Of a stretch of DNA of 63,816 nucleotides, positions 1 to 63,816 are shown one piece after another; within the stretch, counting starts at the first letter, position 1, and each line of letters starts with the position of its first letter. Origin of the DNA: a virus. The notes under the pieces are model-generated. The model was not told where the DNA came from, searched no databases, and was given only the letters and a program-made list of their open reading frames with translations. The stretch covers positions 1 through 63,816 of IMG/VR virus record IMGVR_UViG_3300032224_001028. One strand, written 5' to 3'. The translations under genes were made by a program, and so were the position numbers.

Positions 1-123
1 GCGCATGTTGCTCGAAAGGGCAGTGGATCCATCCCAAGCCGGACTGCCTACCGACGTAGAGGTGCGATCCGCCAAGTTGCTTGTCGAAAAGCTGGCACGT
101 AGGGCCATGACTTCGGGCGACGA
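1..123. repeat. terminal direct repeat, left copy
   Basis: These 123 bases are identical to 63694-63816. A giant reading frame crosses the join without a break in frame, so the contig is circular (or circularly permuted) with a unique length of 63,693 bp. The repeat is most simply an assembly overlap and not a biological terminal repeat, because it lies inside a coding region. Confidence 0.95.
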
Positions 124-2857: not shown

Positions 2858-2898
2858 CTTGTCGGCGAAACAACAACAAGGTATAGGAGTAGATCTTT

Positions 2899-31117: not shown

Positions 31118-31189
31118 GTAACAAGTGTCACACGCAAATCTAATCAAATCAAATCGATAAGTGGCGGATTAAGTCACTATCATACAAAT

Positions 31190-42095: not shown

Positions 42096-43825
42096 GTCTG
42101 GATTCAGTAATCGAAACGAGTCCTGCTCTCTGGATGGCAACATCCGGAATCATTAAAAACAAGGCCGGCAATCTAGTTAGGCCCAAGCCGAATGATTTTC
42201 AGAAGTTCGTTTCGGAAGTGATTGAGTGGTGTATCGAAAATAACGAGCGTCCTAGAATAGTCATCCTTAAGCCTCGCCAAAAGGGATCCTCAACGGTTTC
42301 GTGCGCTTGCGTCTATACGTTCTTGCGTCGCTTCTCCGGAGCTAGGTGCGCCTTGATCGGGGATGAGTTGGATACGTCAAACAATCTTGCGGAAATCTTC
42401 AGCCGGTATGCAGACATGGACGATCACGCATGGGGCAACGAATGGCATAAGACTAAGTTGGCATTCTCAAACGATTCAAGTTGTCACAAGGAAACGGCAA
42501 ACGATCCACGGGCCGGCATGTCGTCCACCTTTCAAGTCGTCTTGGCGTCCGAGGTGGCACACTGGAAGAAGCGGGGAGAACGGAATGCCGAAAGCGTACT
42601 TCTTTCGATCCTGAATTGCGTACCCGATGAGCCGAAAACCCTAGTTATTGTTGAATCTACCCCGAACGGTGCGTCCGGTGCGTTTTATGAGAGGTGGCAA
42701 AAGGCAGTATGGTTTGAGGATTTCAAAAAAGGAAAGAAGGGGAACGGTTTCATCCGTGTCTTTTGGCCTTGGTATTCATTTGCGGATTCTGTCGAGACGT
42801 TGCCGGCTCAGAAAGAAGAGGAAATTAAGGAATCCCTCACGGATTCTGAGAGGAATCTGATGGGTTTGGGTGCGACGATACCGAATCTTGCATGGCGTCG
42901 CCGGATCGTGGGTGAGAAATGCGGTGGAGATGCCGAGCTTTTTAATCAGGAATACCCCACCGACGACGTTTCATGCTTCTTAACGTCTGGCCGGCCAAGG
43001 TTTGACCGGTCAGGGGTTGAAAGGATCGAGGTTCTTACCAGAAAGAAGCAGAGAACAGAGGGTGTTCTGGATCCTTCCGGTAATTCGGTTGTGTTCCGGC
43101 CTACCGGATCCGCCGAAGCGTGGCTATGGCTATGGGAAAAGCCTGAGTACGGTCGCCGGTATTTGATTGGTGTCGATACCATGACAGGGGCGAGTCAGGT
43201 AGCAGGATCCACAAGGGAGCCGGACTGTCATTCAGTGATAGTTTTGGCATCCGGAGCTTTCGTATTAGGCAAATGGATCCCGCCTTCCGTAGTTGGGAGG
43301 TTAAAACCACCTTGCAGGGTGGATATTGACGTTCTGGCCCTATTTGTGGACAGGCTTTCAAGGTTCTTTGGTGGTTGCATGGTCGTTCCAGAGGTAAATA
43401 ACTCCGGATTGGCCCTAATCGAACTACTTAAGGATGCTCAAACGCCGATTTACCAACGTGAAATCTTCAATTTACGTGAATCCAAGAAGGCGAAGGCACT
43501 TGGATGGCAAACAACCGAAAAGACAAGGACGCTAGCAATAGAAACACTAGCCACGGCAATCAGAGACGGGGATCTGGATGGTGGCGGAATCAATATCTAT
43601 TGCCCAAACATCCTTTCCGAACTTAAGACATTCGTAATTACGGACTCCGGCAAGGCCGAGGCGATGAGTGGGAATCACGACGACGATGTTTTGGCTTTAT
43701 CAATCGCAATAGCGACAATCGATGGCGCAACTCCCTATCTTGCACCGTCATCAACAAGAGGACTACCGAGAGATCTGCTCAACGCAGAGAAATCCATTCA
43801 GGCAAACCGCAGAAGCTATGCTTGA
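42092..43825 (+). CDS. terL: terminase large subunit
   Basis: 577 aa. An ATPase domain with a Walker-A-like L-K-P-R-Q-K-G-S-S-T (residues 59-68), a Walker-B-like L-V-I-V-E-S-T and a motif-III-like segment is followed by a nuclease domain: G-V-D-T-M-T-G-A-S (Asp) and the C-terminal H-D-D-D-V-L-A-L-S. It is the motor and nuclease that packages DNA into the prohead. The size is typical. Confidence 0.9.
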   Translation: MSLDSVIETSPALWMATSGIIKNKAGNLVRPKPNDFQKFVSEVIEWCIENNERPRIVILKPRQKGSSTVSCACVYTFLRRFSGARCALIGDELDTSNNLAEIFSRYADMDDHAWGNEWHKTKLAFSNDSSCHKETANDPRAGMSSTFQVVLASEVAHWKKRGERNAESVLLSILNCVPDEPKTLVIVESTPNGASGAFYERWQKAVWFEDFKKGKKGNGFIRVFWPWYSFADSVETLPAQKEEEIKESLTDSERNLMGLGATIPNLAWRRRIVGEKCGGDAELFNQEYPTDDVSCFLTSGRPRFDRSGVERIEVLTRKKQRTEGVLDPSGNSVVFRPTGSAEAWLWLWEKPEYGRRYLIGVDTMTGASQVAGSTREPDCHSVIVLASGAFVLGKWIPPSVVGRLKPPCRVDIDVLALFVDRLSRFFGGCMVVPEVNNSGLALIELLKDAQTPIYQREIFNLRESKKAKALGWQTTEKTRTLAIETLATAIRDGDLDGGGINIYCPNILSELKTFVITDSGKAEAMSGNHDDDVLALSIAIATIDGATPYLAPSSTRGLPRDLLNAEKSIQANRRSYA

Positions 43826-48559: not shown

Positions 48560-48787
48560 ATGGATGGCGAATCGGGAGTTTTCTCGGTTCCTATCCTTAC
48601 GGATTTTCCGGAGGAGTGGAAACCGAAAAAGTGGAAAAAAGGGTTATCTGTCTCAGAAGCCAATAACCAAGGCGGGGATTGGTATGACAAAATGAAGAGT
48701 GCCGACAGGAAAGCCCAAAAAGAAGCAAAGAATGAGGCAAATAAACAGGCAAATAGAGAATCAGCACAGAAACGTGCAAGCCTATAA
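48560..48787 (+). CDS. small basic protein ahead of the giant gene
   Basis: 75 aa. A short ordered N-terminus with K-P-K-K-W-K-K-G-L is followed by a Lys/Ala/Asn-rich helix. Ends 3 bases before the start of the giant gene, so probably co-translated. Function unknown. Confidence 0.55.
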   Translation: MDGESGVFSVPILTDFPEEWKPKKWKKGLSVSEANNQGGDWYDKMKSADRKAQKEAKNEANKQANRESAQKRASL

Positions 48788-48790
48788 TCC

Positions 48791-51700
48791 ATGAGCCTAG
48801 AGAACATCTTCGATGACTCCAAGGGAGCTAGTCGCCTACCTGACTCTAAGAGCGTTGGGATCGACCCAGTTAAACTTGAGGATGTTAATTTTGACCCTAA
48901 AGAGGCGGATCCGGTGGAACCGACTGGTTCTGCCATGGCTTACGCTAGTCCGGTAAATCCAAACCCATCCGGAATCGATTTCAGGTTTATCAGGGATCCT
49001 TACGCCAGAAAGAACTTCAAGGGCGAGATCGATTACGCAAACAAAGCGGATCAATTCAATAGCAGGATTGAATCTGCTCAGGCCCAGCTAAAGGCTAGGG
49101 AAGAGAGAGCAAAGCAAGTAGCGGAGCTTAAGGCTCAAAAGCAACAGGAAGCAGATTTCAAGAAGGGAATGAATAGCGAAAAGGAAGGGCAATACAGGAA
49201 GGCAGGACAAAAGTTTTATACGGATGCTTTTGGTGACGTTCAGCCTCAAGTCAATGAAGAGAACAAGCCAATGTTTGAGCCTACTCCTTGGAAGATTCAA
49301 AAGGGGTTAGATGGGCGAAACGTAAAAACCCGTAGGAATGAGTTTGGGCAAATAGAGACTGAAGATCCTGACAAGGAAGCACCTATTGCAGAATCCAAGA
49401 TTAAACCAAACCAACTTTTCCGGAAGAACAAGCTATCGGAGGATCAATTTGTCGGAACAGTGGATGAAGGTCTTACCTCTGGTGACGAAACAATCCGAGG
49501 TGTGGCGGAACAGGCCAGAGAGAAGCAGAACGATAATCTTCTCAAAGAAACAAGGAACTCGTTTGTACGCCAAGAGCTTAAGGTTAAAGCAGATCTCGAC
49601 GATCATAAACTTCAGATGGCCCAGCTTGCCAAGGCGTCGCAGGAAAACGACATGCTTCCGGATTCGCCTGAGAAGCTAGCAAAGAAGGCTGAAATTGATA
49701 AGGCAATCGAGGACGGTGCGAAAAAAGCGCAAACAATTAGCGAATCACTGCTAGAGGCAAAAGCCCAGCGTGAGGATTTTGAGGCAAGCCAGAGTCTATC
49801 TGCATGGTCAAATGCTGAGAGGGCAAGACTAGATTTCTTGAGAAGCGACAGAGGCGCAGAATATCTAAAGCGAAAAGGAATTGATAGCCCTGAAAAGGAT
49901 CAGGTTTTAATTGATATTCGCAACAAGCTGAATGAGCAGGGCAGGAAAACCTTGGAGCAGTCTCAAAAAAAAACTGAAGATAGAACCCAGCTAGTCGGAA
50001 ACATGATGATTGACGGGGGGGCGCAACCCGAATCATCCAAAAAGAGTCCTGCTTTGCCGATGCAAGACACGGCCACGCTTAGAGAAGCCGATGACAAGTA
50101 CGAAAAACGGGTTAATGAAGCAAAAACGGTAGCAAACGAAATAGGCACAAAAGAAAATGAAAAAGTACGTGCATTATATTCGAATCTAAACGCTAGTGCC
50201 GATGCGGTTACTTCAATCGATAATCAACTCAAAGGATTGCAAGACCGGATGACGGAACTTAAGGCGATGACTGGCGGGAAGATGACTCCCGAAGTTGCCG
50301 GTCGAATCAATGCCTTGGCACAACAAGCAGAAAACCTTAACAAACAAAGGCAGGGGCATGTTGCCAAGTACGAGGAATCGAAGAGTATATTTGATAAGGA
50401 AGTAGGAACATTTGACGAGAAAGGCGGGTTCAAGTCGATTGGTACACGAATGGGGGCGATGTTTGACGCCCAACGCAGTCTTGAAATTGAAGCCAATAAA
50501 GCCGGACAAGAAAGAAACTCAGCCTACGAATCTTTACAGGCAAAGATCGAGCAACAGGCAAAGATTAAGCAGGATACTTTCAAGACAGTCGTAATGCCGA
50601 AGATCGATAGTGCGGTTCGGTCAATGGACGACAAGGCATTCGAGGCTTCAATGAAGGAAGCTACTGACCTTGGAATGGATAAGGAAGTTTCCGAATCGCT
50701 TCGGATGTACTACCAGCAAGCTAAGAAGAAGTATAACGGAAGCGATACAGATTTTTGGGATATGGATGTTTTCAACCTGATGCTTCGAAGTTCGCCGGCC
50801 ATGGGCATGCGTATGATTGGAGCTTTGGCAGATATTGTTGCTGGCGAGAACGATCCTAGAACTTGGTATGTCTTTGGTGAAACACACGAACAAAGGCAAG
50901 CAAGACTAACCTCGTTTGGCGGGGTTGGAGCAGAAACATTGTCACCGGACGTAAAGGCCGGATCCGTTTCAATGGGAATGGGTGACGGGGCAAGGGAAGT
51001 GAGTTTTGGGGAGCTTCTAAGAGAGGCAGAAAAAGCCAAGACAGGCAAATACGACAAGAATGCCGTTCCGGATCCATTTAATCAGGTAATGATTGGTGGA
51101 AGGACATACGATATTGGTACTACCAATTATTTTGTAAATAGCCTTCGCATGGCATCAGAGTATTTAAGAAAAGAAGCTAAAAATCTTGAAGAGGCTCTAC
51201 CGGTATCCGAACAGTTCCTATCAACGGACGTCGGGCAGTTTGCAAAAGGATTGGCAGAGCTTCCGGCTCAAATCGGGCCGGCATTTATTCCTTTTGTTGG
51301 CCCTGCGTTAATGGGAGGTACGGTTTCAGCAGGAATGTACGACGAATACATGCAGGATGCAGAACAAACTGCAATTAAGAACGGTACTGAGTTTGACAGG
51401 CTTTCGGCCCATCAGGGTGCATTAAACTATGTAGCAAAAGGCGCACCGGCTGAAATTGTCTCAAATCTATTAGAGATAAAACTTTTTAAGCTATTTAAGC
51501 CTTTGCTGAATAAAATTACCACAAAGGCACTTGCTGAAGCACTTGGCGGAACGGCAATTTCAGGACTTCTTGGTGGTGGCACTGAGGGATACCAGCAGTA
51601 CATGTTGAACCGCACCAAAAAGTATTTTGATAATATGCCAAATGTCGAACTCACAGATGATGTTTGGCAGAGCTTTAAGATAGGTGGAGCAGTGGAAATG

Positions 51701-54700
51701 TTTATTCCGGCTATGGTTGCCTTGGCTCAATCGGCTCAATCGCAAAACAAGAGATCTACTGATGTTCGTAAGATGATGGAGGATTTTGGGAAGGCTAAAG
51801 AAGAATCGTTGAATGCGCTTCCCGTTGGTCAAAGGGTTACAAATCCTGATCTTTCCGAATATACTCCTAAAGAGATAAGCAAACAGGAAACTAGATTAAA
51901 CTCCATTGATACACGGATTGCTTCTATCGAACTTGAGCTACCCAAGGCAAAGGGAGACAGGAAGCGGGATCTACTGAATGAGGGGGCGCAATTATACGCT
52001 CAAAGAAATCAGATTATCCCTACGGTTACTGTTGGTGCAGAGATGCAGAACCAGATTCAGGAAGAGCTTTCTAGGTTTCCGGCTCAGACCGTAACAGACG
52101 AAAAGGGCAAGGTTGTATCAGAAGCAAAGCTAGGCCCAGTACGGGCATTGGCTAAGTATGCCTCAGGAGCAGAGCTTTCGTTCGACGAAATGGCAGAAGA
52201 GCTTCCCGATGGATCTCCCGTATTCGGCAAAGACAAGAACGGGGCCGTCGTTGTGTCACAAAGGGCAATCGACCAGTATCGAAATACTGCCTCTACGATC
52301 TCTGCCCTAGCTCAAGGCAGGAGCGTACTGAACGCTCGGTCAATGCTTGAGGAAAAGCAGGATCAGCAAAAGGCAAAAACCACTTCAGTTGTCGCAAAAG
52401 ATCGCAAGGAGGAGTCCGGCAATCTGTTCAGGGTGCGGGTTACGGACACAGCAACGATGCAGGATCGTGAGGTAGATGTCCGTTCAGAATCTCCCGAAAG
52501 GGCTAGATTAACGATTGCGGGTAGTCCTAAGGATTACGGATTTGATGGTGGAATTAGGGTAGGGGAAGCAATCCCAGTGGGTGCGGGTGATAATAAACAG
52601 GGTGCAAATGTCGGCAAAGCGACAACAATGCCTCAAAATGCGTTCAGGAGGCCGATTACAGGCAAGGAAAGAACATCCTTGGTAAGATCCATTCTGGACG
52701 CCCCGCCTGAGCGTAGAAAGGCTTTACAGAAGATTTCTGAGTCCGTCGGTGGTCTTGTTGAAAACTACAAGAGCATGTTCGACTCGGTGGACTTCACCGC
52801 ACAGGACAATATCTCTGGTGGCGTACAGATCCGATTCTCACCTGACGGAAAGACAAGAAAGCTAGCGATTAGCCTTACCGGACTGCAAAGGGAGCTTCAA
52901 GGAGCCGAAAATCCCGATCAGGTACTTCTTGGGAAGTTTGTCGAGGAAGTTACTCATTCGGTTGGGGTTCAGGTTGTTTCGAGGGAGGAATCACAAAACA
53001 TTTCAAAAACGATGTCACCAAAACTCCGGAGAGCATTCGTTGATTCTTATTACGCATCAGAAAAATCCGCCGGCAAACAGGGCAAGATTAGCTCTGATAG
53101 CGCATTCTCTGGTGAGCTTACCGATTTAGAGCATTATGAAATAGGGCAAGAGTTCATACGAGCGATTGTCCAGAAGGATGAGCGTGTTTTGGGCTTCATG
53201 ACTGAAGAGGCTCAAACCAATCCGGAGTTTTTGCCCTACTTCATAAACGCACTTAAAAAGATCCTAGATGCGATAACTTCCGGTACGTACAAGATGGACG
53301 CTCCTTTAGCCAACGAAGCTAAAGAGCGAATCATCAGCATGATGGACAAGCTAGGAGCGTTAAACAAAATATCTGCGGATCGGGCGAAAATTGGCTATGG
53401 AAACAGTGCCAAGACAACCGACACTGCAACCGTTCAAGGGGTTCCCGCCACAGGATTACCTACTTCTGTTCCTCAGAATAGAAGTGGAGTTGGAACTGGA
53501 TCAGTTAGCCAAACGAATGAGGGAGGAACCACCGGAGCAAGTGGGTTGGCAGGATCTCCCGCTATTTCAACACAAGGACGTAGCTACAATGTAGCTACAC
53601 CAAAAAATACGATGAGCGTTCCCGTTCAAGGGAAACTCGTCGAATTGGGAGATCTAAAATCATCGGCTGGAACAAACCTTCAGCCACGGGATAGGACACG
53701 GGCGGGTAACAGGGAACAAGAGCTAAAAATTGCAAGGAATCCAAATCATGCGATGTGGGCTAGGCCGGCTTCAACTTCTGATACCGGTCTTACGATTGTA
53801 GGCAAGGATGGTCGTATTTATAGCGGTCACGGAAGGACAAACGCCAAGAACCTTGTCTATCAAATGGCCGAGACACCATCGGCAGATCAAGCATTAGGCC
53901 AAAAGAACGCTCAAGGGCTTAGGGATGAGATCAAGAACACGATGCGACAGATGGGCGAACCGGAATCGGAGATAGCAAAGGTCGATACAATGAAACGCCC
54001 CGACTACGTGGGTGTGTATCAGGGTGACGAGAATCCGAGCAAGATCCGGCAATTCGTCAGGGATTCAAACATCGAGGGGATGAGTGTAGCGGAACAAGCA
54101 TCATACGATGCGCTTGAGTTTATCGATAATCCCAAGCTGATCAGCAACCTACGGGCCGGATCGAATGGAGAGATACTTCTTAAGCGCAACGACAAGGTTT
54201 TATCAGATTTCTACAATGCAATCGGATCCCCTAGAGAGTTAAGGAAGAAAGATGGATCTTGGAGTAAGGCCATGGAAAGCAGGGTAATGGGCGCACTCAT
54301 GGCCCTTAACTTCGGTCAGAATAGCGATACTCTCATCACAACCCTTACGGAAGATGCTGAAAATCTCGGTCTTATTGGACTCCGTGCTGGACTTGTACAG
54401 GCTGGGCCTGATCTTGCGATTCTCGGTGATGGGGAATTGGACATTAAGCCAACCCTGACAAGGGCCGTGGAAGAGTTTGTTAAGTACAAAGAAAACGATG
54501 GGAAAATGGAGGACTTCTTAAGCCAAGGGAGACTCCAAGGGATTGAATCGGAAGCGTCACAAGAGACTGAGTTCATGATGAGAACCATCGCAGAGAATCC
54601 CACGGGCCGAGCGATTGGTGACTTCCTGAGAACCTATGCGGTTTCCGCAGTAGCCATGAAGCGAGAGCGTCAAGCCTACGGGGGTGGGATGTTCCCCGAA

Positions 54701-57700
54701 ACAGAAGTACCCCTCAATGTCATGGATGTTCTCAAAATGGCAACATCCATTGTATCAAAGGGTGATTCAACACAGACCCTTAGTAGTCCCGCAAGGAATA
54801 CCGCAGAGACGTTAGCCGGAAAACTTTCAGCATTTCTTGATCTTTCCAAGAATCCACAAAAGCAAAAAATCGCCCAATACGTTGCAAACTACCATAAAAA
54901 CGGTTTATACGGGCTAATCAATAAGATGCTTGAACCGGTTCCATCCGGAGCATCCCTGCCTCCTCAGGCATACCAATTTGAAGAGAGACTTGAGAAGATC
55001 CTTTCGGTTGGTGATCCGGCTATCGACATCACGCTTCCAGATGGCAACAAGGTAAAGCTGGACGGTGTAGGAGCAAGCAAGGTACTTGCGGGTTTCTTGG
55101 AAGGCGTAAGCAAGCAACAGGACAACTTTAGAGAACTGATTGGAAAGGTTACTGCCGGAAGAGACTGGGTTGCGCTAGTTGCCTCTCCCAAAAAGATGAA
55201 GAGGCTTGCCGAGAAAATAATTTTCGAAAAGAAGGGCATAGTTGCAGATGACGCAAAAGATATTCTTCGGGCCACGATTGCCGTCAATACATTGGATGAA
55301 ATGGATGAGGCGATTGCTGAAATCCAAAAATACGCAAGAGTAACGCAAGATAAGAAGAATCTTTATTTGGACACCGAGAACACTGGCTATGCCCACCGGT
55401 TAATTCTTATTCAATGGGACGGGTTAAATTGGGAGGCAGAAGTACAGATTAACTTACCCGAAATGTTGTTGGCTAAGGATATTGGACATCGTTTTTACGA
55501 AAAGATCCGTAGCCTTGAGGCTTTAGCTACAACTCTTCGAAATAATGAAGAAGTTCTGGCTATCGAACGTCAAATCGAAGAACTAAAAGAAAAGGTTAAT
55601 CAGGTTTGGCGAGGCGCACGGGACTTGATCACTAAACGCTTAAACGCATCCAAGGATCTTACCCGTGGAGCTTCAAACGTGGAGACAAGTGGAAATCGAG
55701 TAAGCGGAATATCATCGCAACGCCAAGCCCTTACTCCAAGTACTGCAACAGGGGTATCATCAACATCAAATAGTTCTGTTTTTGGATCCGAAATCAATTC
55801 TTCGAGATCCGGAGCCTTGGACGCTTCATCAGGTGTTGTTGGCATGACAACAATCAATAGCCAGAAATACGCAGTTCCGCAACCCGAAAGTATCGTTTAT
55901 GCAAATGTCGAGGATTTCAGGGGTACGGTGGATAGTTCTAGGTTGGCAAACGTTCCAGAAAACGAGGCTTCTCTTGGTACTATCTTCAATACAAAGGCAT
56001 CAGGATCATTCGTCGTTAAGCTAGATAAGCTGATTTCACCGGTAAATGAGCTTAACGACGAGGGATTTGTAGCAGGAAAGAAGGCGGATCCACGACAAAC
56101 AGCTATCAATCGCATGGTTTCAAACCTTGATGGAGAGACATTTACACCAAGAGAACCTATTGACCTTGCGGATAACGGTGATGGGACTTACACAATTATT
56201 GACGGAAATGCTACTGCCCAAGGACTTATGTTGGCAGGATGGCAAAATGCGGTTGGAGTTGTTAAGGAGTTTGCCCTTTCAGCCCCCCGTCGAAACACTC
56301 AAGACGCTAATCAATTAAGCCTATTTGACGAAACCGGAAGTGCTTCGGTGTTGTCAAACAGCAAACAAGGGGGTATTGAAAGTGGAGAACAATATGGACA
56401 ACCAAGAACAAGACAATCAACCGGAGAATCCGCCCAAACTCAGGACGGACTACGAGGGAGCGATGAGCTTTTTGGCGAATACGCCAACGGATCAACTCAA
56501 CCAACTAGCCAAGAATCCGGCACTCCTAGAGAAGTTTATTCTAGAGAGGTATCCGGAAACGGAATGGATTCAGTCGGACAACGAGGCGGAGTCGAGCCAA
56601 CAGGCGGAACTAGATCAGGAGACGGTGTACAAAGCGGAACGCAAGATGCTAATACTATCGACGGAGAATCCGGAAGAGTGGTCAGTAATCAAGACGGTGC
56701 TAGAGAAAATCTGCCCGTTCGATCTAAACCTACCGTAGAACGTCCTGCGGAGGGTTCGCCCGACAGAAATCACGAAATTGCCCCTGAGGACATACTTGCC
56801 CCAAGGGGTGACGTAACAAGACTCAAGACAAACATATCGGTAATTAAACTACTCAAGCAACTTGAGTCAGAGGACAGGAATGCAACGACTGAAGAGAAAA
56901 AGATCCTAGCTCAGTACGTAGGATGGGGTGGTTTGTCACAAGCCTTAGATGAAGATAAAGCAGAAAGAGCAAGTGACATGGATTTTCAGCGACGATACAT
57001 GGATGAGGAAACAATTAAGTCGATTGAAAACTGGAATAAGAAATACGGTAAGTATTACACTGAAGTAAAAGACCTTCTTTCTGAGGATGAGTTTAGATCT
57101 GCAAAGGCAAGTACAACTAATGCCCACTATACGTCGCCTCAGGTCATTAAATACATGTGGGATGCGGTCAGGAAACTGGGATTCGATGGCGGAACAGTAC
57201 TCGAACCCGCCGGTGGGGTTGGTCACTTCTTTGGGCTAATGCCGAAGGATATGGCCGATGCGTCCTACACAAAGGCCGTCGAGCTTGACTCTCTATCCGG
57301 AAGGATCATGCGGAAACTCTATCCCGAAACCGACGTTCAGATCACAGGATTTCAGGATGCAGAGATTCCTGATAATTCTATCGACCTTGCCATATCGAAC
57401 GTGCCTTTTGCCAATGTTGCAATATACGATGCCGGCCTTGAAGCGCAGGGTGCGCCCAAATTGTCACTTCATAACTATTTCTTTGCCAAGGCACTTGAGA
57501 AGGTTCGGCCCAGCGGGGTTATAGCCTTTATCACAACAAGCAATACTCTGGACGCCAACGTTGCTCAGAGGAAATGGATTGCAGACCACGGGGAACTAAT
57601 TGGCGCAGTAAGACTTCCAAACACTGCATTCAGCGAAAATGCAAATACAGAGGTCACCACGGACATTATTTTCATGAGAAAGCCGGACGGCAAGATGCCT

Positions 57701-60700
57701 AGCTTTAGTCCGGAGTCATTCAAAAGCACAAAAGAAGTGCCACTAGAGAACGGTGGAACAGTTAAGATCAATGAGTACTTCGCAAGCAATCCCGACATGA
57801 TTCTTGGCCGACTTGCCAACGACGGATCTATGTACGGGGGCAAGGAAGAGATGACGGTACATCCTTTTCAGGATGGCCGAACATTAGAGAGCGTTCTTAG
57901 TCAGTCCCTAGAGAAGTTGTCCGGAGACGTAATGGGCCAGAGCAAACCGGTCAATATGGACGCAGTAAGAAGCGAAGAAGCGATGAGGGGCAAGAAGGTT
58001 GGGACTCTGGCGATGCTTGAGGACGGGAAACTTGGCATAGCCGGAGTAGAAAACTCGGATGAAGAAATCCTTAGTCCAAAAAATCGGCCTATTGCCATGG
58101 GATTCATGCAAGTCAGGGACGCCCTGAATGAATTGTATCGGATGGAAATGGATCCGGAATCTCAGGACGCCGAGATTGAAGATCAACGGAAGGCACTAAA
58201 TGTTGCCTATGACAACTTTGTGGCACGGAATGGATCATTCCATGCAAATAGTAAGCTATTAGACTTTGATCCTGACTATTACCGGATCATAGGAGCCGAA
58301 AATGAGGTAAAGTCTGATAGCAAGGCCGAGAACGTTAAGAAGTTCCTGACTAGGAAAAAGAACTACACAAAGGGTGATATTTTCACAAAGCGGATCCTCA
58401 CCCCAAGGCAGGAGCCTACTTCTGCTTCATCCGTTGAGGATGCTATGGGCATATCCCTTGGATGGAAAGGCACTCTCGACACCGACTACATCGCCGGATT
58501 GGTTGGCAAGTCAAAAGAGGAGGTCGAGAAAGACATTCTTGGCAAGGGTATTGGGTTCAGGGATCCATCTACCGGTCTTGTGTCCACAAAGGAAGAATAC
58601 CTGAGTGGCAACGTAAGAAAGAAACTTAAGATAGCCGAGGAAAAGGCCAAAAAAGACAACAGTTACGAGGCAAACATTGAAGCATTAAAGAAAGTGCAAC
58701 CGGTGGATGTGCCATTCTCCGACATATCAATGAACCTTGGGGCGAACTGGATCCCGACGGACATTATTTCTGACTTTGGTAGAAGCATACTCAAGACACG
58801 GGTTACAGTAACGTACAGCAAGGGGGTCGGGGATGTTTCTTCAGATAGGTACACGGTTACTTACGGATCCGACGGCAAGGGCGCAAGATCAATGGCCGAT
58901 CTTCCCTCAGAAGCCACAAGCATCTACGGCACGGATAGAATGTCAGGAGTTCGACTGCTTGAGATGGCACTTAACATGCAAACGCCGATGGTATTTGACA
59001 CAATCGACGAAAAGAAGGTTTTGAATGCCGGTGAAACCGAAAAGGCAAAACTTGCCATGGAGAAGATCAAGGAATCTTTCGCCCAATACGCATCATCCAA
59101 GCCTGAAGTTTCTGAAGAACTCGCAAAACAGTACAACGAGAAGCGGAACTCCCATGCGTTACGTCAGTACGATGGTCAATTCCTCACATTCCCGTGGCTT
59201 GCTAAGGGATACGACTTATATCCAGACAAAAAGAACGTGGTTTGGAGGGCTATTCAGGACGGCAAAATGCTTATTGCTCACGGGGTTGGAGGAGGAAAGA
59301 CGGTCATCGGCACTGCTTTGACCATGGAACTTCGTCGCCTTGGACTAGCCAAGAAGCCGATGATCGTTGTCCATAACGCTACTTTGGAACAGTTTGCCGG
59401 AACGATTGGAAGAATGGCCCCGACTTCCCGTGTCCTTGTTGCCCGTAAAAAAGACTTCGAAAAGAGCAAGCGAAAGGAGTTTGTGGCGAAAATAGCCTCA
59501 GGAGACTGGGATGCGGTCGTGATGGCCCACTCAACATTTAACCAGATCAAAGACGATCCGGAATACGTAAAAAAGATTACCTATGAGCTTATAGATGAGC
59601 TTCGGGATGCAATCACTCAAACCATGAGTGAAAGCAACGAGGTGAGTCGTTACGGCAGGATCTCCAAAAAGAAAGATCCATCCGTAAAGGAGAAGGAGAA
59701 GCAGATCAAGAGGCTCGAAGAAAGACTCAAGCGAGTACAAGAGCGCAAGGTCGATGATGTCCTTACGTTCCAAGAACTAGGGGTGGACGCTATTATTCTG
59801 GACGAGGCGCATATCTACAAAAAGATGCCTTTCGTAACAAAGCTAAAGAATATCGCCGGCATCGATAATTCGCCCACCGAATCAGGAACAAGCTTATTAA
59901 CCAAAGCACGATTTATTCAGGAAAAGAACAAGGGCCGGAACATCTTCACGATGACTGGCACACCGGTAACAAATACCCTTGGTGAAGTTTGGAATCAGGT
60001 TCGCCTTATCGATCCCGAACTATTGGCCGAGTTTGGTTCATCTAGCTTTGATTCGTTTGTTTCTACATTTGCAGAGGTAGAGAGAAGTGCAGAGCTAAGG
60101 GCCAACGGAAAATATAAGAGCATCCAACGTCTATCGAAATTGGCTAACTTGCCTGAGTGGAACAAGATGTTCCGGACTAGAGCAGACGTCAAGATGGGCG
60201 GGGATATGGTCGTAAAGAACCGGCCTGAAATCAAAGATGGAAAACCTGACCTTATTGCGGTCGAGGCAACTCCTCAGGTAATCGAATACAAAAAGATTAT
60301 CGATAGAATCATCGATGATTTTGACAGCATGGATGGACGAGAAAAGAAGGAAAACAGTCATATTCCGCTAGTTACTTACAATGCTTGCAAACTTGCATCA
60401 ATCGACATGCGTTTGGTGGATGACAAGGCAAAGGATGAGGCGGGAAGTAAATCAAACACCATGATTGAAAAGGTGTTCGAACTTTACAAGAGAACGAATG
60501 ATTACAACGGAACCCAAGTAATCTTCTCTGATCGTTACCGGCCCATGAAAACGGAATCCTTGTCATTCAATGGATTGGATTCGGGCGTTGAAACTGATGA
60601 CAGTGAAGATTCGGGAATGGATCTTATTTCTGGTGCAAAAGAGGAAGAAAAAGAAGAGCGTGAAGCGGAATCCATGGGCGGATTCAACCTTTATACAGAC

Positions 60701-63700
60701 ATCAAAGAGAAGCTGATCAAAAAGGGAGTAAAGCCTGAAGAGATTGCAATTATTAACGATTTCAAGACCGATCAAGCAAAAGAGCAGTTATTCGAGAGGG
60801 TGAACAACGGAACTGTTCGTATCATTATCGGATCGACACAAAAGCTGGGAACTGGCGTGAATATGCAAGGCCGGATGATTGCCGGACATAACTTGGACGT
60901 GCCTTGGACTCCGGCAGAGATGGAGCAACGGGACGGGCGGGTAATCCGTCAGGGCAACATTCACTCAGAGCTTGGCATACCGGTCGAGATCTACCGGTAC
61001 GGTATGAAGGATACGTTGGATTCGGCCCTTTGGCAGAAGCTAGAGTTTAAGGAAAGATTCATTAAACAGGCATTGAGTGGCAAGATTAGCGGTCGTGTCA
61101 TTGAGGATGATTCGGGGCTACTCAGCCTAGCAGAGCAAAAGGCGATCTTGTCCGGCCCGATGGGGCTTGAGAAGTTTAACACCGAGACAAAGATCCGTGA
61201 GCTAGAAAATCAGGAACGGGCATGGGTGCAATCATCGTTCGATGCGATTCAGGCCGGCAAGACTGCCGAGCTTCAGGTTAAGGCATACGAAAACAGGCTT
61301 AACCAGACAAGGGAGTTCCTAAGCGAAGTATCAAACTGGACGCCTGAGCCTACGGCCATGATTGAAGGCGTAGCATTAACGAAAGAAAACGACATCCGTG
61401 ACGCTATTCAGGAGTACTTTGATAAGCGCAGAGATCAGGCCATCCAAACCGGAAAATCGTTCCGAGCATCAGTAGAAGCAAAGAAGCCTTTGGGAGAATT
61501 TACATACAATGGAACAAAAATAACTCTTTCGCCAGCTTCAGTAGATGAAGTGCTAGGTGAACCGGATCCCAAGAAAGCCATTAAGGTAGAAACCGGCGTC
61601 ATGGTCAATGGCCGTGACTTGGGTGCAAAGGTAAAGAGCGCAGGATACGTCGTGAGCGCATTAAGGGATCTCGTTAAGAACCTTAAGAGTTATGAGCAAC
61701 AGTTTATCAACGGCATGGGATCGGCCCAAGAAACGGCAGATTCAGCGACAATCGCATCCTCCAAGGCATTCCCAAGGAAGGAAGAGCTAGATGGTCTTAG
61801 AGCTAAATACGCTAAGATCATGGAGGATTACACGGACAAGGGTAAGACAAATAGGGTTGAAGCAGAGCAAATGCAGTTAAACGCTCCCGCCCTTACGCCA
61901 AGCAAGGCAAGCCTACTCTCCAAAGATGCTATGAACCTGATCGAGCCTATTGCTAGGTCGTTCGTTTCCCCGCAGACATCGCTAGACGAGGCTATTCAGA
62001 TTGGCCGGATCGCACTCATCAAAGCAGTGCAGGGATTCGATCCGAATGCCGGTGATTTTGATAAATACGCAAAGGCAGTAGTTCGGAACGCACTTAAAAA
62101 GAACTACTCAAGGAACGAGGCGTCGGCCCGTGAGATCTCCATGAGATCCATGAACATTGACTCTCCGGTGTCCGGAGAAAGCACGGCCCCGCTGGGTAGC
62201 ATCATTCCGGACGAAAACCAGAGCTTGCCGTCGCAGTCGGCGATTACAAACGACGCACAGAGGCTCATGCAAACCATGATTGACGGACTACCGGTGCGCC
62301 CACGGACGGTTGTATCGGCATACATGAACGGGGAAGGGGTTGCCCAAATCGCAGAAAAGATGGGCATTTCCCGCCAATACGCTTTGACGATGCTCAACAA
62401 TGCTCTCTCAGTACTCCGGAAAAGGTTGGCAAAGGTCGGGATCGAGGAAACCAAGGATCTCATCTCCGGATCCACACGGGAGATTATATCCAGACTGAAC
62501 GCACCGTTAAGAGCAATCACAACGGAAGAGGAGAAGGCTCAGGCCGAGTATCTCACCGAATTGGCCCAAAGCAGAGGATTGACGTTGGATCAGTTTGCCA
62601 CGGAAAGAATCGATGAGTTCCTAGATAGCGCAAAGGCATGGAGACAGGCGCATCCTATTCAAGATGATGACATGCAAGTACTTGGGGCTTCAAATAGGCG
62701 CATCAAATCAAAGTTCCTCACGCCAGTCAGCAAGAGATATGAGGCAGAACAGTTTGAACTAGCATTCGTTAAATCAATGGTAGAGGTGGCAGACAAAGAC
62801 CAAGCCGGAAAGCAGGACATGTCAGAAGAAGGCAAAGCATATCTAATCGATGTCCTTGCCGAGTATCTAGCGTCGAAAACGTCTTTGGATGAAGTGGCAA
62901 AGGGGCAGATCCAGACAGATAAAAGCTTAGATAAATACCCCGATCTCAAGTGGTCTTTTCAGAAGTTTGGTAAAATTGCAGATAAAAACTCTGCGTTTTA
63001 TGATCTCAGTCAGGAGAACAACAAGAAAATATGGGAAGCATATAAACTGCTTGAACAGAACGAAAATAACTCAGTAATCGCATTCGAAAACGACCAAGGC
63101 GACAAACTTCTAGTATCTAAAGCAATAATCAATCCTGAAGATAATGTCGGAATAAATGACTACAACTATAAAGAAGTTCCACTCACAGATTTCAGAAACA
63201 CCGCATACCGACTTACAAAATACACAAGCAGTTTTGGAATACTCGGTGCAATTACAAACCCAACGACAGTAATTACCCCCGAAGGAGACAGCATTACACC
63301 GGCTTGGCATTCATTCTTTCCAAATAAAACTCAGGCAGTGATGAGTGCGATGGGCATAAAGAACCCGCAAAGGGAGACGTACGACGATTACAAGCCTATG
63401 GAATCCTTATTCTCTCCCAGTCGGAATCCAGACATGGATGCAGTTGAGGAGTACATGGACTATCTAGGTAAAGAGTTGCCTGAAACGAATGAGCTAATCA
63501 ACAAGGCAGATAACGAACGTAACAGATTCAAAATCACAGGAAACCCAACGCTAGCCAACCCCGCTAAGGGCATGGGGCGCAACCTAGTGAATGCAGTGGA
63601 TGAGGCTCGAAAAGACATACTGCAACGCCGGCCAGACGTTATCGTGATGGCCGAGGCCCGTGCGCTACTCGCAAATGACGAGGAAGGCGTAAAGCGCATG

Positions 63701-63816
63701 TTGCTCGAAAGGGCAGTGGATCCATCCCAAGCCGGACTGCCTACCGACGTAGAGGTGCGATCCGCCAAGTTGCTTGTCGAAAAGCTGGCACGTAGGGCCA
63801 TGACTTCGGGCGACGA
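48791..63816 (+). CDS. giant polyvalent protein, N-terminal 5,000 residues (continues at 1-2857)
   Basis: From ATG 48791 the frame stays open to the contig end and resumes in frame at base 1, giving 5,919 residues in total. Order of parts: charged coiled coil (1-800); hydrophobic segment (~817-950); E-E-V-T-H degenerate peptidase-like motif (1385-1389); DdrB-ParB-like domain (~1617-1950); RelA/SpoT-like domain (~2120-2250); second ParB-like domain (~2410-2500); DarB-type N6-methylase (~2700-2970); SNF2/DEAH helicase (~3455-4115); sigma-70-like module (~4370-4550); unknown C-terminal region. P1 DarB and DdrB are known virion proteins ejected to protect DNA from type I restriction; the same function here is inferred from the shared domains. 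Confidence 0.92.
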   Translation, partial: MSLENIFDDSKGASRLPDSKSVGIDPVKLEDVNFDPKEADPVEPTGSAMAYASPVNPNPSGIDFRFIRDPYARKNFKGEIDYANKADQFNSRIESAQAQLKAREERAKQVAELKAQKQQEADFKKGMNSEKEGQYRKAGQKFYTDAFGDVQPQVNEENKPMFEPTPWKIQKGLDGRNVKTRRNEFGQIETEDPDKEAPIAESKIKPNQLFRKNKLSEDQFVGTVDEGLTSGDETIRGVAEQAREKQNDNLLKETRNSFVRQELKVKADLDDHKLQMAQLAKASQENDMLPDSPEKLAKKAEIDKAIEDGAKKAQTISESLLEAKAQREDFEASQSLSAWSNAERARLDFLRSDRGAEYLKRKGIDSPEKDQVLIDIRNKLNEQGRKTLEQSQKKTEDRTQLVGNMMIDGGAQPESSKKSPALPMQDTATLREADDKYEKRVNEAKTVANEIGTKENEKVRALYSNLNASADAVTSIDNQLKGLQDRMTELKAMTGGKMTPEVAGRINALAQQAENLNKQRQGHVAKYEESKSIFDKEVGTFDEKGGFKSIGTRMGAMFDAQRSLEIEANKAGQERNSAYESLQAKIEQQAKIKQDTFKTVVMPKIDSAVRSMDDKAFEASMKEATDLGMDKEVSESLRMYYQQAKKKYNGSDTDFWDMDVFNLMLRSSPAMGMRMIGALADIVAGENDPRTWYVFGETHEQRQARLTSFGGVGAETLSPDVKAGSVSMGMGDGAREVSFGELLREAEKAKTGKYDKNAVPDPFNQVMIGGRTYDIGTTNYFVNSLRMASEYLRKEAKNLEEALPVSEQFLSTDVGQFAKGLAELPAQIGPAFIPFVGPALMGGTVSAGMYDEYMQDAEQTAIKNGTEFDRLSAHQGALNYVAKGAPAEIVSNLLEIKLFKLFKPLLNKITTKALAEALGGTAISGLLGGGTEGYQQYMLNRTKKYFDNMPNVELTDDVWQSFKIGGAVEMFIPAMVALAQSAQSQNKRSTDVRKMMEDFGKAKEESLNALPVGQRVTNPDLSEYTPKEISKQETRLNSIDTRIASIELELPKAKGDRKRDLLNEGAQLYAQRNQIIPTVTVGAEMQNQIQEELSRFPAQTVTDEKGKVVSEAKLGPVRALAKYASGAELSFDEMAEELPDGSPVFGKDKNGAVVVSQRAIDQYRNTASTISALAQGRSVLNARSMLEEKQDQQKAKTTSVVAKDRKEESGNLFRVRVTDTATMQDREVDVRSESPERARLTIAGSPKDYGFDGGIRVGEAIPVGAGDNKQGANVGKATTMPQNAFRRPITGKERTSLVRSILDAPPERRKALQKISESVGGLVENYKSMFDSVDFTAQDNISGGVQIRFSPDGKTRKLAISLTGLQRELQGAENPDQVLLGKFVEEVTHSVGVQVVSREESQNISKTMSPKLRRAFVDSYYASEKSAGKQGKISSDSAFSGELTDLEHYEIGQEFIRAIVQKDERVLGFMTEEAQTNPEFLPYFINALKKILDAITSGTYKMDAPLANEAKERIISMMDKLGALNKISADRAKIGYGNSAKTTDTATVQGVPATGLPTSVPQNRSGVGTGSVSQTNEGGTTGASGLAGSPAISTQGRSYNVATPKNTMSVPVQGKLVELGDLKSSAGTNLQPRDRTRAGNREQELKIARNPNHAMWARPASTSDTGLTIVGKDGRIYSGHGRTNAKNLVYQMAETPSADQALGQKNAQGLRDEIKNTMRQMGEPESEIAKVDTMKRPDYVGVYQGDENPSKIRQFVRDSNIEGMSVAEQASYDALEFIDNPKLISNLRAGSNGEILLKRNDKVLSDFYNAIGSPRELRKKDGSWSKAMESRVMGALMALNFGQNSDTLITTLTEDAENLGLIGLRAGLVQAGPDLAILGDGELDIKPTLTRAVEEFVKYKENDGKMEDFLSQGRLQGIESEASQETEFMMRTIAENPTGRAIGDFLRTYAVSAVAMKRERQAYGGGMFPETEVPLNVMDVLKMATSIVSKGDSTQTLSSPARNTAETLAGKLSAFLDLSKNPQKQKIAQYVANYHKNGLYGLINKMLEPVPSGASLPPQAYQFEERLEKILSVGDPAIDITLPDGNKVKLDGVGASKVLAGFLEGVSKQQDNFRELIGKVTAGRDWVALVASPKKMKRLAEKIIFEKKGIVADDAKDILRATIAVNTLDEMDEAIAEIQKYARVTQDKKNLYLDTENTGYAHRLILIQWDGLNWEAEVQINLPEMLLAKDIGHRFYEKIRSLEALATTLRNNEEVLAIERQIEELKEKVNQVWRGARDLITKRLNASKDLTRGASNVETSGNRVSGISSQRQALTPSTATGVSSTSNSSVFGSEINSSRSGALDASSGVVGMTTINSQKYAVPQPESIVYANVEDFRGTVDSSRLANVPENEASLGTIFNTKASGSFVVKLDKLISPVNELNDEGFVAGKKADPRQTAINRMVSNLDGETFTPREPIDLADNGDGTYTIIDGNATAQGLMLAGWQNAVGVVKEFALSAPRRNTQDANQLSLFDETGSASVLSNSKQGGIESGEQYGQPRTRQSTGESAQTQDGLRGSDELFGEYANGSTQPTSQESGTPREVYSREVSGNGMDSVGQRGGVEPTGGTRSGDGVQSGTQDANTIDGESGRVVSNQDGARENLPVRSKPTVERPAEGSPDRNHEIAPEDILAPRGDVTRLKTNISVIKLLKQLESEDRNATTEEKKILAQYVGWGGLSQALDEDKAERASDMDFQRRYMDEETIKSIENWNKKYGKYYTEVKDLLSEDEFRSAKASTTNAHYTSPQVIKYMWDAVRKLGFDGGTVLEPAGGVGHFFGLMPKDMADASYTKAVELDSLSGRIMRKLYPETDVQITGFQDAEIPDNSIDLAISNVPFANVAIYDAGLEAQGAPKLSLHNYFFAKALEKVRPSGVIAFITTSNTLDANVAQRKWIADHGELIGAVRLPNTAFSENANTEVTTDIIFMRKPDGKMPSFSPESFKSTKEVPLENGGTVKINEYFASNPDMILGRLANDGSMYGGKEEMTVHPFQDGRTLESVLSQSLEKLSGDVMGQSKPVNMDAVRSEEAMRGKKVGTLAMLEDGKLGIAGVENSDEEILSPKNRPIAMGFMQVRDALNELYRMEMDPESQDAEIEDQRKALNVAYDNFVARNGSFHANSKLLDFDPDYYRIIGAENEVKSDSKAENVKKFLTRKKNYTKGDIFTKRILTPRQEPTSASSVEDAMGISLGWKGTLDTDYIAGLVGKSKEEVEKDILGKGIGFRDPSTGLVSTKEEYLSGNVRKKLKIAEEKAKKDNSYEANIEALKKVQPVDVPFSDISMNLGANWIPTDIISDFGRSILKTRVTVTYSKGVGDVSSDRYTVTYGSDGKGARSMADLPSEATSIYGTDRMSGVRLLEMALNMQTPMVFDTIDEKKVLNAGETEKAKLAMEKIKESFAQYASSKPEVSEELAKQYNEKRNSHALRQYDGQFLTFPWLAKGYDLYPDKKNVVWRAIQDGKMLIAHGVGGGKTVIGTALTMELRRLGLAKKPMIVVHNATLEQFAGTIGRMAPTSRVLVARKKDFEKSKRKEFVAKIASGDWDAVVMAHSTFNQIKDDPEYVKKITYELIDELRDAITQTMSESNEVSRYGRISKKKDPSVKEKEKQIKRLEERLKRVQERKVDDVLTFQELGVDAIILDEAHIYKKMPFVTKLKNIAGIDNSPTESGTSLLTKARFIQEKNKGRNIFTMTGTPVTNTLGEVWNQVRLIDPELLAEFGSSSFDSFVSTFAEVERSAELRANGKYKSIQRLSKLANLPEWNKMFRTRADVKMGGDMVVKNRPEIKDGKPDLIAVEATPQVIEYKKIIDRIIDDFDSMDGREKKENSHIPLVTYNACKLASIDMRLVDDKAKDEAGSKSNTMIEKVFELYKRTNDYNGTQVIFSDRYRPMKTESLSFNGLDSGVETDDSEDSGMDLISGAKEEEKEEREAESMGGFNLYTDIKEKLIKKGVKPEEIAIINDFKTDQAKEQLFERVNNGTVRIIIGSTQKLGTGVNMQGRMIAGHNLDVPWTPAEMEQRDGRVIRQGNIHSELGIPVEIYRYGMKDTLDSALWQKLEFKERFIKQALSGKISGRVIEDDSGLLSLAEQKAILSGPMGLEKFNTETKIRELENQERAWVQSSFDAIQAGKTAELQVKAYENRLNQTREFLSEVSNWTPEPTAMIEGVALTKENDIRDAIQEYFDKRRDQAIQTGKSFRASVEAKKPLGEFTYNGTKITLSPASVDEVLGEPDPKKAIKVETGVMVNGRDLGAKVKSAGYVVSALRDLVKNLKSYEQQFINGMGSAQETADSATIASSKAFPRKEELDGLRAKYAKIMEDYTDKGKTNRVEAEQMQLNAPALTPSKASLLSKDAMNLIEPIARSFVSPQTSLDEAIQIGRIALIKAVQGFDPNAGDFDKYAKAVVRNALKKNYSRNEASAREISMRSMNIDSPVSGESTAPLGSIIPDENQSLPSQSAITNDAQRLMQTMIDGLPVRPRTVVSAYMNGEGVAQIAEKMGISRQYALTMLNNALSVLRKRLAKVGIEETKDLISGSTREIISRLNAPLRAITTEEEKAQAEYLTELAQSRGLTLDQFATERIDEFLDSAKAWRQAHPIQDDDMQVLGASNRRIKSKFLTPVSKRYEAEQFELAFVKSMVEVADKDQAGKQDMSEEGKAYLIDVLAEYLASKTSLDEVAKGQIQTDKSLDKYPDLKWSFQKFGKIADKNSAFYDLSQENNKKIWEAYKLLEQNENNSVIAFENDQGDKLLVSKAIINPEDNVGINDYNYKEVPLTDFRNTAYRLTKYTSSFGILGAITNPTTVITPEGDSITPAWHSFFPNKTQAVMSAMGIKNPQRETYDDYKPMESLFSPSRNPDMDAVEEYMDYLGKELPETNELINKADNERNRFKITGNPTLANPAKGMGRNLVNAVDEARKDILQRRPDVIVMAEARALLANDEEGVKRMLLERAVDPSQAGLPTDVEVRSAKLLVEKLARRAMTSGD
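51241..51650 (+). other. hydrophobic segment of the giant protein
   Basis: Residues ~817-953 contain stretches such as I-G-P-A-F-I-P-F-V-G-P-A-L-M-G-G and L-A-E-A-L-G-G-T-A-I-S-G-L-L-G-G-G. Similar Gly/Ala-rich hydrophobic regions appear in large polyvalent phage proteins. A membrane-crossing role during ejection is speculative. Confidence 0.45.
53641..54660 (+). other. DdrB-type ParB-like domain of the giant protein
   Basis: L-Q-P-R-D-R-T-R at residues ~1629-1636, then a spaced R-x-x-E-x-x helix, I-V-G-K-D-G-R-I-Y-S-G-H-G-R-T (~1672-1686) match the DdrB-ParB superfamily core, where G-N-G-R is normally seen. DdrB is a P1 virion protein linked to DNA protection. Here the Asn of G-N-G-R is His. 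Confidence 0.75.
55150..55530 (+). other. RelA/SpoT-synthetase-like domain of the giant protein
   Basis: D-I-L-R-A-T-I with Asp2157, T-G-Y-A-H with Gly2199, and E-V-Q-I-N with Glu2217, followed by A-K-D-I-G-H-R-F-Y-E. They correspond in order and spacing to the D-I-A-G-x-R, G-Y-x-x-x-H and E-x-Q-I-R elements of (p)ppGpp synthetases; the acidic catalytic residues are kept, while the His after G-Y is shifted and the substrate-binding N-terminal motif is not obvious. Confidence 0.6.
56020..56290 (+). other. second ParB-like domain of the giant protein
   Basis: Residues ~2410-2500: K-L-D-K-L-I-S-P, a helix with R-M-V-S-N-L-D-G, P-I-D-L-A-D-N-G-D-G-T-Y-T-I-I-D-G-N-A-T. This is the ParB/Srx-type order ending in the D-G-x-x-T/H loop. 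It directly precedes the methylase. Confidence 0.6.
56870..57700 (+). other. DarB-type N6-adenine methylase domain of the giant protein
   Basis: Y-V-G-W-G-G-L precedes the core, then A-H-Y-T-S-P, motif I E-P-A-G-G-V-G-H-F (Glu2805) and motif IV S-N-V-P-F (Asn2870), with L-H-N-Y-F-F-A-K-A. It is a gamma-class N6-methylase as in DarB. Methylation of ejected or entering DNA is inferred. Confidence 0.85.
59160..61140 (+). other. SNF2/DEAH helicase domain of the giant protein
   Basis: Motif I G-V-G-G-G-K-T (3498-3504), DEAH box D-E-A-H (3671-3674), T-G-T-P-V-T-N-T (3722-3729) and motif VI Q-R-D-G-R-V-I-R-Q-G-N (4046-4056). All helicase motifs are intact. The methylase-helicase pair is the DarB architecture. 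Confidence 0.9.
61900..62440 (+). other. sigma-70-like module inside the giant protein
   Basis: Residues ~4370-4430 match sigma region 2: helix with E-P-I-A-R-S-F, then L-D-E-A-I-Q-I-G-R-I-A-L-I-K-A-V, G-F-D-P-N-A-G-D-F and Y-A-K-A-V-V-R-N-A-L. Residues ~4490-4545 match region 4: L-P-V-R-P-R-T-V-V, A-Q-I-A-E-K-M-G-I-S-R-Q-Y-A and a final L-R-K-R-L helix. Region 1 and most of region 3 are missing. Confidence 0.75.
63694..63816. repeat. terminal direct repeat, right copy
   Basis: Identical to bases 1-123; see the left copy. Confidence 0.95.

What the first reader, a model, noticed from the sequence alone, without database searches (positions are those of the whole stretch)
48791..63816. One 5,919-residue polyvalent protein gene fills 28% of the genome and crosses the contig junction
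The frame opened at 48791 has no stop to the end of the window and joins in frame to the frame ending at 2857 through a 123-base identical overlap. By domain content it combines DdrB-ParB, RelA/SpoT-like, ParB-like, DarB methylase, SNF2 helicase and sigma-like parts. DarB/DdrB ejection and DNA protection are known for phage P1; so many different activities in one chain, in a small podovirus-like phage, is not something I recall. A linear gene caller would see only two fragments.
Basis: partly seen in the sequence, partly recalled or inferred. Interest (0 to 1): 0.92.

Follow-up and report, generated by a model that had tools for sequence, protein, structure and literature searches.

The report
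Giant ejected phage protein carrying sigma factor
One virus gene, 28% of a 64-kb phage genome, encodes a single 5,919-residue protein of the known kind that short-tailed phages are thought to inject with their DNA; what is new is that it also contains a sigma factor (the subunit that aims bacterial RNA polymerase at promoters), which could let the virus seize host transcription as its DNA enters.

Summary
The frame from 48791 runs to the contig end and joins in frame, through a 123-bp assembly overlap, to the stop at 2857: 5,919 aa, 27.9% of 63,693 bp. Independent contigs cross the junction in frame at 94-97% aa identity; a 64.6-kb relative closes with its own 127-bp overlap elsewhere in the same gene. 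dN/dS is 0.085 over 5,412 codons.

It is a phage polyvalent protein, a known kind. Giant DarB-like proteins of 3,640-5,145 aa are common in 38-64 kb podophages, and one is proven in virions, so size and multi-enzyme content are not new.

The second ParB-like domain is unconfirmed. Missed: the C-terminus belongs to the "internal virion protein D" family of T7-like phages, which points to ejection.

The new part is the sigma module. It recurs beside the internal-virion-protein domain in four divergent lineages (plus a fragment of a fifth), mosaically, under strong purifying selection; I found no published precedent. Best hypothesis: the ejected protein brings a sigma factor that recruits host RNA polymerase to incoming DNA. 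Ejection and sigma activity are untested.

The parts
48791..63816 (+). 5' part of the giant gene (residues 1-5008 up to the contig end; residues 4969-5008 are repeated at 1-123)
   Evidence: purifying selection
1..2857 (+). 3' part of the giant gene (residues 4969-5919 and stop), continuous with 48791-63693
   Evidence: crossed in frame by L002-L007
63694..63816 (.). 123-bp copy of bases 1-123: assembler overlap at the circular junction
52808..53380 (+). Residues 1340-1530: conserved segment with an EExxH motif (LLGKFVEEVTHSVG); possibly a divergent peptidase-like segment, function unassigned
   Evidence: motif; similar DEEFKH segment in L111 seen by eye; omega 0.03
53606..53923 (+). DdrB-like ParB domain (residues 1606-1711; SGHGRT motif)
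   Evidence: Pfam PF18763 above cut-off
55058..55600 (+). RelA/SpoT-like nucleotidyltransferase-fold domain (residues 2090-2270)
   Evidence: AF2 plus Foldseek; homologue in G006 vs PF04607; omega 0.077
55958..56290 (+). Possible second ParB-like domain (residues 2390-2500; IIDGNATAQGLMLAGW)
   Evidence: sequence pattern, shared with L140; no library match; inconclusive
56783..57790 (+). DarB-type N6-adenine methylase (residues 2665-3000; motif I EPAGGVGHF, motif IV NVPF)
   Evidence: phrog_10089/phrog_11801; motifs
59228..61120 (+). SNF2-type ATPase (residues 3480-4110; Walker A GGGKT, DEAH, motif VI QRDGR)
   Evidence: PF00176/PF00271 above cut-off; motifs; omega 0.026
61910..62125 (+). Sigma-70 region 2 (residues 4374-4445)
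   Evidence: PF04542 32.2 bits (cut-off 24); PDB RpoS/SigA; Foldseek; omega 0.035
62258..62440 (+). Sigma-70 region 4 (residues 4490-4550)
   Evidence: PF08281 21.7 bits (cut-off 25.7); the homologue in L034 is above cut-off (38.4); omega 0.010
63407..63693 (+). Start of the internal-virion-protein-D-type C-terminal region (residues 4873-5919; continues at 2-2854)
2..2854 (+). Internal-virion-protein-D-type C-terminal region (core residues ~5290-5780), with a possible LuxR/sigma-r4-like HTH near residues 5150-5205
   Evidence: phrog_6651 (all six tested homologues); hhalign E 3e-35 to Autographiviridae internal virion protein D; HTH weak
48560..48787 (+). 75-aa gene ending 3 bp before the giant gene's ATG
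2899..5001 (+). Portal gene directly downstream (context)
   Evidence: phrog_1216
42092..43825 (+). Terminase gene upstream in the late block (context)
   Evidence: phrog_24361

Best explanation
One gene encodes one 654-kDa polyvalent ejection protein. Its C-terminal ~1,000 residues are the internal-virion-protein-D module that would place it in the virion and put it through the host envelope with the DNA (inferred from homology). The rest is a string of effector modules delivered at entry: an adenine methylase-SNF2 pair against restriction (as DarB), a DdrB-like ParB domain, a RelA/SpoT-like nucleotidyltransferase, and a sigma-70 region 2 + region 4 module. The sigma module would bind host core RNA polymerase and direct it to promoters on the entering DNA, starting phage transcription and possibly transcription-driven DNA uptake before any phage gene is expressed. 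It would do with host polymerase what N4 does by ejecting its own. Shown: the single frame, selection on every module, homologies, recurrence. Inferred: virion location, ejection, sigma activity, timing.
For: Single frame supported by independent contigs and selection. C-terminus: phrog_6651 in 6 of 6 homologues, hhalign 99.9%, E 3e-35 over 482 columns to the 'internal virion protein D' of CRP-403 and ProddE. Late-block context: terminase, head/tail-type genes, giant, portal, major capsid. Bcep22-like JC1 gp69 (4,515 aa DarB) is in virions with 51 unique peptides (PMC9144972); P1 DarB and DdrB are head proteins (PMC9024508). Sigma: Pfam r2 above cut-off; PDB hits are sigma factors; Foldseek top 50 are sigma-RNAP entries, E 1e-6 to 2e-4; omega 0.01-0.035; the same module beside the same C-terminus at ~25-33% identity in L034, L111 and G006/G007. 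No phage RNA polymerase among the genes scanned. T7 gp16-C is placed in the host cytoplasm next to incoming DNA, and host RNAP transcription helps pull T7 DNA in (PMC8954989).
Against: No proteomics or activity data for this phage. Region 4 in the window is below Pfam's cut-off. The C-terminus has no detectable similarity to T7 gp16 itself, so the ejection argument rests on annotation of T7-like relatives. The sigma region 2 is absent from 11 of 16 related giants (some truncated), so it is not essential to the family. No phage-specific promoter motif was found in a crude scan. No classical HExxH protease was found that would free the modules.
Confidence: 0.6

Rival explanations
1. The sigma module acts late: newly made giant protein, before packaging, turns host RNA polymerase to late or structural genes, like T4 gp55 but fused to a virion protein; the virion-borne copy is incidental.
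For: Known phage sigma factors such as T4 gp55 act after infection (PMC5780444); the gene sits in the late block.
Against: Placing it beside the internal-virion-protein domain in four divergent lineages, rather than as a separate gene, fits delivery better. A structural protein made late in the cycle would be a poor regulator of its own gene block (inference).
Confidence: 0.2
2. The module is a sigma mimic rather than a promoter-reading sigma: it binds host RNA polymerase to shut off or sequester it, or it only binds DNA during packaging or entry.
For: Region 4 is divergent (below cut-off); phage proteins that blunt host RNA polymerase are common (general knowledge); no dedicated promoters found.
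Against: Both the core-binding region 2 and the DNA-reading region 4 are under strong constraint (omega 0.035 and 0.010) and both are above cut-off in L034.
Confidence: 0.17
3. Artefact: two genes or an assembly chimera joined by a chance overlap.
For: The frame crosses a contig end.
Against: Six contigs cross the junction in frame; G001 closes at a different place; selection runs across the join.
Confidence: 0.01

Closest known systems
Polyvalent proteins of phages and conjugative elements (Iyer et al. 2017, PMC5512222)
   Same: Many unrelated enzymatic and nucleic-acid domains in one chain in a late-gene neighbourhood; ddrB-ParB, RelA/SpoT and methylase-SNF2 are named domains of the class.
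   Different: The word sigma does not occur in that paper's main text; its transcription module is the N4-type virion RNA polymerase. Its zincin peptidase was not found here. It says RadC is confined to conjugative elements, but phage-type relatives L034 and L195 carry it.
DarB-like giants of Bcep22-like and similar podophages (phrog_10089; JC1 gp69, Pavtok gp27, 8P, LASTA)
   Same: Methylase-SNF2 core at 30-37% identity over ~1,500-1,700 residues; 3,640-5,145 aa; large share of a 38-64 kb genome.
   Different: Flanking modules differ: SLT, M15, cell-wall hydrolase, InPase, LPD37/38/39, ART there; sigma and internal-virion-protein-D here.
Internal virion protein D of T7-like phages (phrog_6651; CRP-403, ProddE, pelagi- and cyanophages)
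   Same: C-terminal ~480 columns homologous.
   Different: Those proteins are ~1,200-1,300 aa without the effector string; no similarity to T7 gp16 itself detected.
N4 virion RNA polymerase
   Same: Works-like comparison: transcription machinery delivered with the DNA inside a giant virion protein.
   Different: Here a sigma factor for host polymerase instead of a polymerase; no homology claimed.
Stand-alone phage sigma factors (T4 gp55, phiEco32-type ECF)
   Same: Phage-encoded sigma used to redirect host RNA polymerase.
   Different: Those are separate genes acting after infection; here the sigma is part of a predicted virion protein.

Membership tests
Polyvalent protein (Iyer 2017) | Two or more domains of disparate biochemistry in one polypeptide | tested here: met
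Polyvalent protein (Iyer 2017) | Phage-type: late/virion gene neighbourhood | tested here: met
Polyvalent protein (Iyer 2017) | Zincin metallopeptidase (common in the class, not required) | tested here: not met
   no Pfam match, no HExxH; only an EExxH motif
Polyvalent protein (Iyer 2017) | Injected with the DNA | not testable with these tools
   needs proteomics
DarB-like antirestriction (phrog_10089) | Methylase-SNF2 dyad with intact motifs | tested here: met
   motif IV reads NVPF instead of NPPF
DarB-like antirestriction (phrog_10089) | Protects DNA from restriction | not testable with these tools
   needs an experiment
Sigma-70 family | Region 2 | tested here: met
   PF04542 over cut-off in window, L034, L111, G006, G007
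Sigma-70 family | Region 4 | tested here: inconclusive
   below cut-off in window, above in L034; structure match covers both regions
Sigma-70 family | Binds core RNA polymerase and directs initiation | not testable with these tools
   needs an experiment
RelA/SpoT | Synthetase fold | tested here: met
   model mean pLDDT 65
RelA/SpoT | Pfam RelA_SpoT match above cut-off | tested here: not met
   no match in window; G006 homologue E 4.9e-4, below cut-off
T7-like internal virion protein D (phrog_6651) | Sequence homology to the family | tested here: met
T7-like internal virion protein D (phrog_6651) | Similarity to T7 gp16 itself | tested here: not met
   (two annotated members of the family also fail this test)

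The most novel reading that the evidence does not exclude
A third way for a phage to start transcription at entry: it neither waits for host sigma nor brings its own RNA polymerase, but ejects a sigma factor tethered to its DNA-delivery protein, so host RNA polymerase is captured at the entry site on phage DNA. The cassette has been gained or lost repeatedly next to internal virion protein D.
Probability: 0.45. Interest if true: 0.85.

Novelty: new variant of a known kind. Interest (0 to 1): 0.6.

Why it matters
If the sigma module works at entry, phages have an unreported strategy for taking over transcription from the first moment, with a portable, testable cassette. It extends the polyvalent-protein idea from defence-blocking to direct control of host RNA polymerase. 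A family of even larger predicted ejection proteins (up to ~6,600 codons, about 35% of a 56.6-kb contig) also raises the physical question of how such chains pass a podophage portal.

Tried and rejected
(1) Assembly artefact at the junction: rejected. (2) Uniqueness by size: rejected; cultured DarB giants reach 5,145 aa, and internal-virion-protein-D giants have open frames up to 6,618 codons. (3) The first phage-collection hits to the sigma segment (MT837418, MT838074) looked like sigma-bearing phages but are ordinary bacterial sigma genes beside other bacterial genes. (4) Sigma in cultured DarB giants: none of ten by Pfam on their flanking halves. (5) RNA polymerase module in giants lacking sigma: none seen in those scanned; they carry C5 methylase, GNAT, GHKL ATPase, Strawberry-notch helicase, InPase, zeta-toxin-like kinase, RadC. 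(6) Promoter signature: crude -35/-10 scan uninformative. (7) Direct link to T7 gp16: not found; PDB search with the C-terminal profiles gave nothing beyond a weak HTH. (8) Single origin of the sigma module: the tree needs 4 changes (at least 2 forced), no clustering beyond chance.

Full report
OBSERVATION. The frame opening at 48791 (ATG) has no stop to the contig end, and the frame from base 2 runs to a stop ending at 2857. The first and last 123 bp are identical; with one copy removed the two join to a 17,760-bp gene, 5,919 aa, 654 kDa, 27.9% of 63,693 bp. The longest other ORF in the stretch is 138 aa. An in-frame TAA two codons upstream fixes the start.

Independent contigs settle the junction. 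L002-L007 encode the junction region in frame with no stop at 94-97% aa identity; L006 (G001, 64,634 bp) is open from residue 1638 to 5919. G002 carries residues 1-5412 on one linear contig. G001 has its own 127-bp terminal overlap, at residues ~1440-1481 of the same gene, and holds the window's 123-bp repeat once, internally. The repeats are therefore assembler overlaps of circular or permuted genomes. Against G002, dN/dS is 0.085 over 5,412 codons; named modules range from 0.01 to 0.11, the 2390-2500 segment is 0.22 and the linker 2510-2660 is 0.97.

ANATOMY. Pfam gives ddrB-ParB (residues 1606-1711), SNF2/helicase C and Sigma70 region 2 above cut-offs, region 4 below it. PHROGs gives DarB-like antirestriction (phrog_10089) over residues ~2430-4380 and 'internal virion protein' (phrog_6651) in the C-terminus. 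Methylase motif I, Walker A, DEAH and helicase motif VI are present; methylase motif IV reads NVPF instead of NPPF. Residues 2060-2270 were modelled (mean pLDDT 65) and best match SpoT, small alarmone synthetases, CapRel and Tas1; a homologous segment in G006 matches Pfam RelA_SpoT at E 4.9e-4, below cut-off. A second ParB-like domain at 2390-2500 is only a pattern.

The sigma segment (4374-4550) matches RpoS/SigA/RpoD chains in the PDB (E 1.5e-5). Its model (two well-formed halves, pLDDT ~75-83, loose linker) has sigma-RNA polymerase structures as its top 50 Foldseek hits; low global TM-scores reflect the unfixed linker. The C-terminal region aligns by profile to internal virion protein D of the Autographiviridae phages CRP-403 and ProddE over 482 columns (E 3e-35) and all six tested homologues match phrog_6651 only. 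T7 gp16 itself is not detectably similar, nor do those annotated members match it, so the name rests on family annotation and gene position.

CONTEXT. Terminase (42092-43825), head/tail-type genes, the giant, portal (2899-5001) and major capsid (10407-11906) lie in one late block; replication initiator, DnaC-like loader, RecT, exonuclease, SSB and an integrase are elsewhere. No RNA polymerase was seen among the genes scanned.

RELATIVES. The methylase-SNF2 part has 115 hits among phage records. Ten cultured giants (3,640-5,145 aa) share essentially only that part with the window (one, Y7, also a short upstream stretch); their flanks carry lytic transglycosylase, M15, InPase, ART and LPD domains, but no sigma. 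JC1 gp69 (4,515 aa, 22.1% of its genome) is in virions (PMC9144972). So a giant DarB-type virion protein in a small podophage is known.

Searching with the C-terminal region found a second family of giants. Sixteen contigs have it at the end of open frames up to 6,618 codons. Five of them (four lineages: window species, G004/L034, G005/L111, G006/G007) hold Sigma70 region 2 in the same frame, and L138 starts within a region-4-like segment. Sigma segments are ~25-33% identical between lineages. The neighbours vary: DarB in the window, L034 and G006; MuF_C and ART in L111; RadC in L034 and L195; C5 methylase and GNAT in G012, a Strawberry-notch-type helicase in G009; InPase or a zeta-toxin-like kinase in others. 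On the C-terminal tree the sigma label needs four changes and is not clustered. G006 repeats nearly the whole order ddrB-ParB region, RelA/SpoT-like, methylase-SNF2, sigma, C-terminus at 25-40% identity.

MECHANISM. Polyvalent proteins are proposed to be injected at infection (PMC5512222). For phages the stated need is to start transcription, met in that survey by the N4-type virion polymerase; the word sigma does not occur in that text. In T7, gp16-C is placed in the cytoplasm at the entering DNA and host RNA polymerase transcription pulls DNA in (PMC8954989). A sigma module attached to a related ejection protein would put promoter recognition at the same place. That step is inference; homology, conservation and recurrence are shown.

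LITERATURE LIMITS. Searches for sigma with polyvalent, internal virion protein or virion-associated found no report of an ejected sigma factor. The library holds only open-licence papers, and supplementary domain lists were not readable.

VERDICT. Observation confirmed; domain reading largely right; novelty moved from size and multi-enzyme content (known) to the sigma cassette joined to an ejection module (a new variant).

Noticed in passing
L140, ORF residues ~1088-1453 (approx. L140:3263-4360): An intein-like insertion with a LAGLIDADG domain interrupts the Walker A motif (GGGK|T) of the SNF2 domain in a related giant from a Verrucomicrobiales MAG.
   Followed up: partly
L034, ORF residues ~2507-2540 and ~2975-3005: A ~30-residue direct repeat (KPGEQENTLNDTNSETIPSLASGERARGQ) flanks the inserted RadC module between SNF2 and sigma: a possible footprint of module insertion.
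   Followed up: no
L034 and L195: RadC-like JAB domains inside phage-type giants, whereas Iyer 2017 lists RadC only in conjugative-element polyvalent proteins.
   Followed up: partly
window 14492-15061: The encoded protein contains a long (GTST)n tandem repeat.
   Followed up: no
L030 (Pseudomonas phage Itty13) 8784-21119: The record annotates three hypothetical genes on the opposite strand of an open 4,112-codon DarB-type frame, so the giant gene appears mis-annotated.
   Followed up: no
L012, L014 (MT837418, MT838074): Records labelled Bacteriophage sp. carry bacterial genes, including SigE-like sigma factors; probably host contigs.
   Followed up: partly
window 30038-31147 (minus): Integrase, so the phage is probably temperate; no tRNA gene in the window.
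   Followed up: partly
giant residues 4580-4870 (window 62528-63400): The segment between sigma and the C-terminal module is the fastest-evolving long stretch (78% aa identity, dS above 1 against G002), suggesting recombination.
   Followed up: no
giant residues ~5150-5205 (window ~545-712): A possible second LuxR/sigma-r4-like helix-turn-helix in the C-terminal region, seen weakly in several homologues.
   Followed up: no
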